DNA of 64,000 nt from Spirochaetota bacterium (GTDB lineage Bacteria > Spirochaetota > UBA4802 > JAFGJZ01): the NCBI GenBank assembly GCA_029554345.1, contig JAKPJF010000009.1:1-64000 (forward strand), given 5' to 3'. The notes under the pieces were generated by a model. That model made no database searches. It was not told the DNA's origin and worked only from the letters and a program-made list of their open reading frames with translations. The translations under genes were made by a program, and so were the position numbers. Below, piece by piece: positions 42,463 through 43,980 of this stretch (positions are counted from its first letter, which is position 1; each line of letters begins with the position of its first letter).

Positions 42463-42493
42463 AATAAAAAAATACAGCGCCGCAGCGCTGTAT
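42463..42493 (-). terminator. intrinsic terminator after the glutaredoxin-CAP gene
   Basis: ATACAGCGC and GCGCTGTAT (42472-42480 and 42485-42493) with a CGCA loop, followed by seven T on the minus strand. Only 8 nt after the gene's stop codon. Confidence 0.85.
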
Positions 42494-42501
42494 CAAAATC
42501 T

Positions 42502-43716
42502 CTATTTTATCAAATCTCCGGTATCACCGCCCACCCAGCAATTATCAGCAAAAATCGGATAATAATAAGCTGCAAATTTTGAAAAATCTTTAGATGTGCT
42601 TATATCATGATTATCCCATCCTTCGGGCACTGCAGTGTTTCCCTTCCATTTACCTTTTACTCTAATAAGACCCGCGACATAAATACCGTTTCCTACTGAA
42701 TAGACTGCTCCCTTGGATTTCTTTGTATACACTGCAATATAAACACCGTCAGAACCCTTATAATTATTAGCTATCGGAAGAAGTTTCTTTGTAGATCCGC
42801 TGAAAAACTGACTTGAAACATTGTTTGATGAAACATAAATATTGATTTCAGTCGGAAGTTCGTTTTTTGGAGTTTCAGAAGGATTAATACTTCCTCCTCC
42901 GGCAGGCAATACGTTTTCTTTAAATTTACCGGAATAATTACCGGGAGAACTGTAATTGCAGACTACATATACACCGCCGTTTTTGGACTTAGCTTTACCG
43001 CAGCCAATCAGGGTAGAACCTTTCCATACAACCTGGGTAAAATGGCCGGTTGCCATTGAAAAACCAGGTTTATTGAAATTATATTGTTTTATTTCAGAAT
43101 ACCACGCATCAACAGCATCAATTCCATTTGAATCTCCGCCTGAAATCCAGTAAATATTCTCACCGTACTTGTTAGGCTGGCGGTGGTACATTCTATTTTC
43201 AGAAGCAAGTTTATCCGCCCATTGCTGAGCATATTTTTCAATTTCCGTACTCCACTGCAGATCAGGAGCAGAATGTTTTTTTCTGTAAAAATTATGCCTT
43301 GTTAAAATATTATTTTTGAAACTCTGATTAACGGTATTTCCTGTATCCGGCTTATCTTCATTTTTGATTACATCGGTTTTTCCGCCTTTTGACGCGGCAA
43401 GTATTGAAGCTTCAAAATCAGCCAGATTCGGGATATTATAATATAACTTTCCATTGAACTGAACAACCGGCATAGTCACGGAACCTCCGCTGAATCCGCT
43501 AGTCGGAGATTTTAATAATGACCACATTTTTGTTCTATTATCATTATTTGAAGTTGAGTATTCATTATACTTGATATTATTCTTTTTTAAATAATTCACT
43601 ACGTGCGTACATCTTGAACATCCAGGCATAGTGTAAACATCAACCGCAGGAGCAGATTGAGCCTGAATCATAATTGCCGAAAAAAATGAAAGAAATAAAA
43701 CAGCCGTTTTTTTCAT
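42502..43716 (-). CDS. exported glutaredoxin-CAP (SCP/PR-1) fusion protein
   Basis: 404 aa. Signal peptide (1-20). A glutaredoxin-like domain (about 24-108) has YTMPGCSRCTHVVNYLKK with a CxxC at 33-36 and the cis-Pro loop TMPVVQFNGK. A CAP domain (about 132-275) has the full-looking catalytic tetrad: His in MYHRQPNKYGENIYW with its Glu, Glu in AWYSEIKQYN, His in GHFTQVVWKGS, plus the CAP2 motif VYVVCNYSSPGNYSG. A C-terminal roughly 110-aa domain (Ser/Asn-rich then WKGNTAVPEGWD) is unrecognised. CAP proteins act on glycans, lipids or protein partners outside cells. The fusion of a redox domain to a CAP domain is unusual. Monocistronic. Confidence 0.85.
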   Translation of the reverse strand: MKKTAVLFLSFFSAIMIQAQSAPAVDVYTMPGCSRCTHVVNYLKKNNIKYNEYSTSNNDNRTKMWSLLKSPTSGFSGGSVTMPVVQFNGKLYYNIPNLADFEASILAASKGGKTDVIKNEDKPDTGNTVNQSFKNNILTRHNFYRKKHSAPDLQWSTEIEKYAQQWADKLASENRMYHRQPNKYGENIYWISGGDSNGIDAVDAWYSEIKQYNFNKPGFSMATGHFTQVVWKGSTLIGCGKAKSKNGGVYVVCNYSSPGNYSGKFKENVLPAGGGSINPSETPKNELPTEINIYVSSNNVSSQFFSGSTKKLLPIANNYKGSDGVYIAVYTKKSKGAVYSVGNGIYVAGLIRVKGKWKGNTAVPEGWDNHDISTSKDFSKFAAYYYPIFADNCWVGGDTGDLIK

Positions 43717-43980
43717 GAAACCCTCTCCTTTAACAAGAGTATCCTAATGATTAATTTCACATTGAATCTTACTGATGGATTTTAACAGCTTACAATGAAG
43801 AGTCAAGAAATTATTAAATGCATAACAAAGACTAAATCAGCATAATTTCAAAAATATAACTGTTCCTTTCAATACCAAGACAATATTCTTATTAATGTTT
43901 GACAAAGTTACAGCAAATAAGAAAATCAGACTGCTTTGAAAAACCAAATGCAAACAGACTTATCCGGGAAAGGAAAATAA

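What the first reader, a model, noticed from the sequence alone, without database searches (positions are those of the whole stretch)
42502..43716. Exported glutaredoxin fused to a CAP (SCP/PR-1) domain
One secreted polypeptide joins a glutaredoxin fold with an intact CSRC pair and cis-Pro TMP loop to a CAP domain whose His/Glu tetrad and CAP2 motif look complete, plus an unrecognised C-terminal domain of about 110 aa. Glutaredoxins are normally cytosolic and glutathione dependent. An exported one needs a different reductant or works as an oxidase or isomerase. A fusion like this could control a disulfide in the CAP domain or its target, for example in envelope or host contact. The combination is uncommon as far as I know, but I cannot search.
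Basis: partly seen in the sequence, partly recalled or inferred. Interest (0 to 1): 0.65.

Follow-up and report, generated by a model that had tools for sequence, protein, structure and literature searches.

The report
Secreted glutaredoxin–CAP fusion, recurrent in spirochaetes
This spirochaete gene encodes a real secreted protein that joins a thiol-redox (glutaredoxin) domain to a PR-1-like CAP domain and a small unnamed domain, and because related spirochaetes have made glutaredoxin–CAP fusions at least three separate times, the two domains probably work together outside the cell.

Summary
Window 42502-43716 (-) is one intact 404-aa gene: signal peptide, glutaredoxin domain (CSRC, cis-Pro TMP), CAP domain with a full His/Glu tetrad, and a ~120-aa C-terminal (CT) domain. 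A second species of the genus keeps all three (88% identity). Purifying selection acts on every domain (dN/dS 0.05-0.10), so this is not a sequencing error.

The fusion is not a one-off. A distinct exported glutaredoxin subfamily occurs across Spirochaetota, and 10 of the 22 members found carry a CAP domain, using unrelated CAP subfamilies and both domain orders. A tree test rejects a single origin (p-AU 0.0004). Other members carry a ricin-type lectin or the CT domain alone; some are solo lipoproteins.

The CT domain folds confidently in prediction (pLDDT 93) but matches no known family or solved fold; it recurs in cyanobacteria and rhizobia.

Best reading: an exported, glutathione-independent thiol-disulfide oxidoreductase, positioned on an envelope ligand by CAP and other modules. 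The idea that the glutaredoxin controls the CAP disulfide is weak, because unfused CAP proteins keep that disulfide in a genome without an exported glutaredoxin. No paper found describes the fusion. Activity, substrate and reductant are untested.

The parts
42502..43716 (-). Gene: secreted Grx-CAP-CT fusion protein, 404 aa
   Evidence: orthologue with conserved synteny in a second species of the genus
43779..43806 (-). Promoter-like site TTGACT-16-TAAAAT with TG before the second hexamer (consensus match only)
43657..43716 (-). Signal peptide, residues 1-20, no lipobox
   Evidence: sequence; N-terminal helix 2-19 in the model
43381..43656 (-). Exported glutaredoxin domain, residues 21-112
   Evidence: Pfam Glutaredoxin E 1.6e-7; fold order; dN/dS 0.05
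43609..43620 (-). CSRC redox motif, residues 33-36
   Evidence: sequence; first Cys invariant across 21 exported Grx domains
43468..43476 (-). TMP loop, residues 81-83 (cis-Pro 83)
   Evidence: sequence; Pro invariant across 21 exported Grx domains
43327..43380 (-). Flexible linker, residues 113-130
   Evidence: pLDDT <50 over 113-126; dN/dS 0.38
42901..43326 (-). CAP (PR-1/GAPR-1/Pry1-like) domain, residues 131-272; tetrad H178 E186 E208 H225; predicted disulfide C239-C253
   Evidence: Pfam CAP E 3.4e-25; PDB matches GAPR-1 and Pry1; residues
42865..42900 (-). Flexible linker, residues 273-284
   Evidence: pLDDT <50 over 275-285; dN/dS 0.29
42505..42864 (-). Unnamed C-terminal (CT) domain, residues 285-404, mostly beta; single Cys393
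   Evidence: pLDDT 93.4; no Pfam or PDB sequence family; no fold match
42471..42494 (-). Intrinsic terminator directly after the stop codon
   Evidence: 10-pair stem plus T run; fold z-score -6.2

Best explanation
The protein is a secreted thiol-disulfide oxidoreductase whose catalytic part is an exported glutaredoxin of the glutathione-independent (YruB/NrdH-like) class. The CAP domain, aided by the CT domain, works as a docking module that binds an envelope or extracellular ligand, plausibly a lipid, and holds the redox domain on flexible linkers next to its substrate proteins. C33 of CSRC would attack a disulfide or mixed thiol on a target and C36 would resolve it. Shown here: architecture, intact active sites, conservation and selection, and repeated independent pairing of exported Grx with CAP and other secreted modules. 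Inferred: catalysis, its direction (reductase or isomerase is the more likely), docking by CAP, and electron supply from the DsbD/CcdA system.
For: Single intact ORF with all three domains under purifying selection and relaxed linkers. CxxC kept in 17 of 21 exported Grx domains, cis-Pro in all. At 60 bits or more, the exported Grx profile finds 22 proteins in 21 genomes, apart from ordinary cytosolic glutaredoxins at 59 bits or less. Ten of the 22 carry CAP: Grx-CAP-CT, Grx-CAP-MORN, Grx-Grx-CAP, CAP-Grx-barrel and CAP-CAP-Grx. CAP-fused Grx domains are not one clade (p-AU 0.0004). The window-type CAP shows no blastp similarity to the CAPs of the other fusion types, and the window-type and CAP-Grx-barrel CAPs have close solo relatives. 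Grx is the constant part and its partners vary: RicinB lectin, CT or CAP; solo forms carry lipobox-like signals. Linkers are disordered in the model. GshB absent in 7 of 7 fusion genomes; DsbD/CcdA-type membrane protein found in 6 of 7.
Against: No activity, localisation or substrate data. The window's own 96%-complete genome gave no DsbD or VKOR match, so its electron partner is unidentified. In the CAP-Grx clades the motif is CxxT rather than CxxC, so not all members can do dithiol chemistry. CAP binding to any ligand is inferred from eukaryotic relatives.
Confidence: 0.45

Rival explanations
1. Intramolecular redox switch: the Grx domain forms or breaks the CAP disulfide C239-C253 (or acts on the lone Cys393), turning CAP ligand binding on and off.
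For: C253 aligns with Pry1 C279, whose change to Ser abolishes sterol binding and export (PMC7340583; alignment). Redox state also controls GAPR-1 assembly (PMC6803662). Grx-CAP pairing recurs.
Against: The same Cys pair is nearly invariant in solo CAP homologues, including a 66%-identical one from G023, a genome with no exported Grx above threshold. The CAP domains of the other fusion types lack this pair. A Grx-CT protein without CAP exists.
Confidence: 0.15
2. Oxidase or isomerase: the exported Grx puts disulfides into secreted proteins, as exported E. coli Grx3 can.
For: Exported Grx3 (GrxC) can take part in disulfide formation in the E. coli periplasm (Eser et al. 2009, cited in PMC12453122). 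No VKOR oxidase found in G000, G003 or G377, so a substitute could be useful.
Against: The precedent depends on glutathione, whose synthetase (GshB type) was not found in these genomes. Other fusion genomes have VKOR as well.
Confidence: 0.2
3. The thioredoxin fold serves only for binding or structure, and the protein is a multi-module adhesin or lectin-like surface protein.
For: CAP-Grx clades have CxxT, and second Grx copies in some tandem proteins have lost the cysteines. Partners such as RicinB look like binding modules.
Against: CxxC and cis-Pro are intact in the window protein and most relatives, with dN/dS 0.05 in this domain.
Confidence: 0.15

Closest known systems
Pry1 / GAPR-1 type CAP proteins (PF00188)
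   Same: CAP fold with full His/Glu tetrad and CAP motifs; about 40% identity to GAPR-1 and Pry1; C239-C253 aligns with a Pry1 cysteine pair
   Different: Joined to an exported glutaredoxin and a CT domain; two CAP cysteines, where Pry1 has four; bacterial
YruB / Uxx-star / NrdH / mycoredoxin glutaredoxins (TIGR02196, NF041212, TIGR02194, TIGR02200)
   Same: Nearest Grx class by profile score; CxxC and cis-Pro
   Different: Exported, longer second helix region with an MW motif; the window domain scores far below every curated cut-off
Exported E. coli Grx3 (laboratory construct)
   Same: Glutaredoxin working outside the cytoplasm
   Different: Dependent on periplasmic glutathione; these proteins are naturally exported and no GshB was found in the genomes
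Stand-alone lipoprotein-like glutaredoxins of Spirochaetota (this study, e.g. G149, G194, G215)
   Same: Same exported Grx subfamily
   Different: No CAP or CT; lipobox-like signal

Membership tests
CAP superfamily (PF00188) | Profile match above curated cut-off | tested here: met
   89.6 bits against cut-off 21.1
CAP superfamily (PF00188) | CAP fold (alpha-beta-alpha sandwich) | tested here: met
   Foldseek TMt 0.9 to GAPR-1 and Pry1
CAP superfamily (PF00188) | His/Glu cavity tetrad | tested here: met
   H178, E186, E208, H225
CAP superfamily (PF00188) | Lipid or sterol binding (Pry1 function) | not testable with these tools
   needs purified protein
Glutaredoxin (PF00462) | Profile match above curated cut-off | tested here: met
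   31.9 bits against cut-off 22.9
Glutaredoxin (PF00462) | Thioredoxin fold with CxxC and cis-Pro | tested here: met
Glutaredoxin (PF00462) | Glutathione dependence | tested here: inconclusive
   no GshB in 7 genomes, nearest class is the glutathione-independent one; GshF-type synthesis or uptake not excluded
YruB-family glutaredoxin (TIGR02196) | Score above curated cut-off | tested here: not met
   29.3 bits (whole protein) or 31.8 bits (domain) against 88.55
Any Pfam family, for the CT domain | Profile match | tested here: not met
   no significant match for any of 8 members

The most novel reading that the evidence does not exclude
Exported glutaredoxin and CAP form a recurrent functional partnership, in which bacterial CAP proteins deliver thiol-disulfide chemistry to a lipid or protein target on the cell envelope. 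That would tie the long-unclear role of bacterial CAP domains to extracytoplasmic redox control without glutathione.
Probability: 0.3. Interest if true: 0.75.

Novelty: new variant of a known kind. Interest (0 to 1): 0.5.

Why it matters
The biochemical role of CAP domains in bacteria is poorly understood, and naturally exported glutaredoxins are hardly described. At least three independent fusions of the two in one phylum are good evidence of a shared pathway, and the proteins are small and soluble enough to test directly. The work also defines a compact, confidently predicted domain with no named family that is shared by spirochaetes, cyanobacteria and rhizobia.

Tried and rejected
Sequencing error or chance read-through: rejected by the second species and dN/dS.

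Cysteine loss in domains fused to Grx: fused CT domains have 1-2 cysteines against 6 in solo exported spirochaete CTs, and a fused CAP has 2 against 4 in its solo paralogues. But the cyanobacterial CT has 2 and the rhizobial one 1, and the RicinB module shows no loss, so the direction of change is unclear and I do not claim it.

CT domain limited to spirochaetes: suggested, overturned.

CAP gene beside solo exported Grx genes: none seen with a home-made CAP profile, which may miss distant CAPs.

Novosphingobium hit overlapping the Grx half: the annotated gene holds only the CAP part.

Phage origin: no phage match. A profile scan of viral contigs could not run, because the alignment is too divergent.

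Literature: no description of a Grx-CAP fusion in the open-licence papers searched; most subscription papers are not held.

Full report
What is there. The minus-strand ORF at 42502-43716 encodes 404 aa. Pfam places a glutaredoxin domain at 25-91 and a CAP domain at 138-255, both above curated cut-offs. The protein has five cysteines: C33 and C36 (CSRC), C239 and C253 in CAP, and C393 in the C-terminal (CT) domain. The CAP tetrad H178, E186, E208, H225 is complete. A promoter-like site and a strong terminator suggest the gene is transcribed alone.

Is it one real gene? A second species of the genus (Spirochaetes bacterium UR.bin167; its contig appears to be the one held as G003:C23) has the full-length protein at 88% identity with the same neighbours. 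dN/dS is 0.051 for Grx, 0.064 for CAP and 0.103 for CT, against 0.38 and 0.29 in the two linkers. A genome from another family of the same order, G167, has all three parts at 50% identity.

Structure. The full-length model has a thioredoxin-type order of elements in the first domain and a CAP fold close to GAPR-1 and Pry1. Overall pTM is 0.43, and the linkers fall below pLDDT 50, so the relative domain placement is not predicted. The CT domain alone is predicted at pLDDT 93.4 from eight relatives. It has no significant Pfam or PDB sequence match and no significant Foldseek match in PDB or BFVD. No library of predicted cellular structures was available.

A family of exported glutaredoxins. A profile of nine exported domains, later widened to 21, was run over 393 Spirochaetota genomes and over 46 genomes of another order. 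Scores split into an exported group at 64 bits and above and other glutaredoxins at 59 bits and below. At least one further tandem secreted protein (G026) scores 56 bits, so the count is a lower bound. The exported group has 22 proteins in 21 genomes. Some were in the profile, so for the most divergent ones I repeated the search with a profile that left them out: the CAP-Grx-barrel proteins score E about 1e-14 and the CAP-CAP-Grx proteins about 1e-7.

Architectures seen: Grx-CAP-CT (G000, G003, G167); Grx-CAP-MORN and a separate Grx-CT (both G187); Grx-RicinB (G181); Grx-Grx-CAP (G222; its N-terminus is cut by the contig end); CAP-Grx-barrel-like C-terminus (G377, G411, and G409 cut at the contig start; the barrel is my reading of the sequence, not a family match); CAP-CAP-Grx (G404, G420; only the first CAP is matched by Pfam, the second is my reading); unknown-Grx (G199); tandem Grx (G193, G179, G043); and solo, mostly with lipobox-like signals (G149, G194, G215, G169, G132, G161).

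Independent origins. Holding all CAP-fused Grx domains together is rejected (lnL difference 46, p-AU 0.0004). Support inside the tree is limited by the short domain (89 columns), and one row has a very long branch. The window CAP shows no blastp match to the CAPs of the other fusion types, while it is 66% identical to a solo CAP; the G377 CAP is 77% identical to a solo CAP encoded next to it. Domain order is reversed in two types. The conservative count is three origins: window type, G222 type, and the G377/G404 group, whose two architectures may share a history because G404 also has a G377-like solo CAP beside its fusion gene.

How it may work. The nearest named glutaredoxins are the YruB, Uxx-star, mycoredoxin and NrdH groups. 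No GshB glutathione synthetase was found in seven fusion-bearing genomes, whereas 9 of 14 control genomes gave a match; GshF-type enzymes would be missed. DsbD-type membrane proteins were found in six of seven and VKOR in four of seven, but neither in the window's own genome, so its electron partner is open. The constant Grx with changing partners, together with loose linkers, fits a catalytic head carried by docking modules. That is inference.

The CAP-disulfide idea. Pry1 C279 is needed for sterol binding (PMC7340583) and aligns with C253 here (numbering worked out from the alignment, assuming the 298-residue chain starts at residue 2). This makes redox control of CAP chemically sensible. 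However, the same pair is near-invariant in solo CAPs, including that of G023, where no exported Grx was found, and the other fusion types lack it. I therefore rank it below a docking role.

Beyond the phylum. The CT domain also occurs as small proteins on cyanobacterial plasmids and at the N-terminus of C1-family peptidases on rhizobial plasmids, in R. etli beside a lanthipeptide synthetase gene. No Grx-CAP fusion was seen on plasmids or phages. Bacterial chromosomes outside Spirochaetota were covered only by the one pattern-based scan, which finds close relatives only, so the fusion may exist elsewhere.

Verdict. A real, conserved and recurrent domain fusion with no description found in the papers that could be searched. 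Both core domains are known, so this is a new variant of a known kind. Interest 0.5.

Noticed in passing
L198 1399-2586 and L196 1486-1863 (plasmids NZ_CP020910.1, NC_019428.1): The unnamed CT domain forms the N-terminus of a papain-family (C1) peptidase beside a LanM lanthipeptide synthetase in Rhizobium etli, and a 125-aa stand-alone protein in Anabaena.
   Followed up: partly
L193 6811-8170; L195 1928-3270: In G167 (Grx-CAP-CT) and G181 (Grx-RicinB) the exported Grx gene lies near an NfeD-like gene followed by a stomatin/SPFH gene on the same strand, although the two fusions have different partners. The window lacks this neighbour.
   Followed up: partly
L188 3207-5353; L191 5112-7436: CAP genes cluster: a solo CAP gene sits directly beside the CAP-CAP-Grx gene (G404) and beside the CAP-Grx-barrel gene (G377).
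   Followed up: partly
L190 1330-2169: A secreted thioredoxin-like protein (Thioredoxin_7) is encoded about 30 bases after the CAP-Grx-barrel gene in G409, but not seen at that place in G411.
   Followed up: no
L195 4294-7434: The RicinB module fused to Grx in G181 resembles the one in the neighbouring secreted protein (RicinB plus a weak transglutaminase match), suggesting local module capture.
   Followed up: no
window 42538-42540 (residue Cys393): The window genus has a single, probably unpaired cysteine in the CT domain, where several relatives have a CxxxCW pair; both species of the genus share this odd count of five cysteines.
   Followed up: partly
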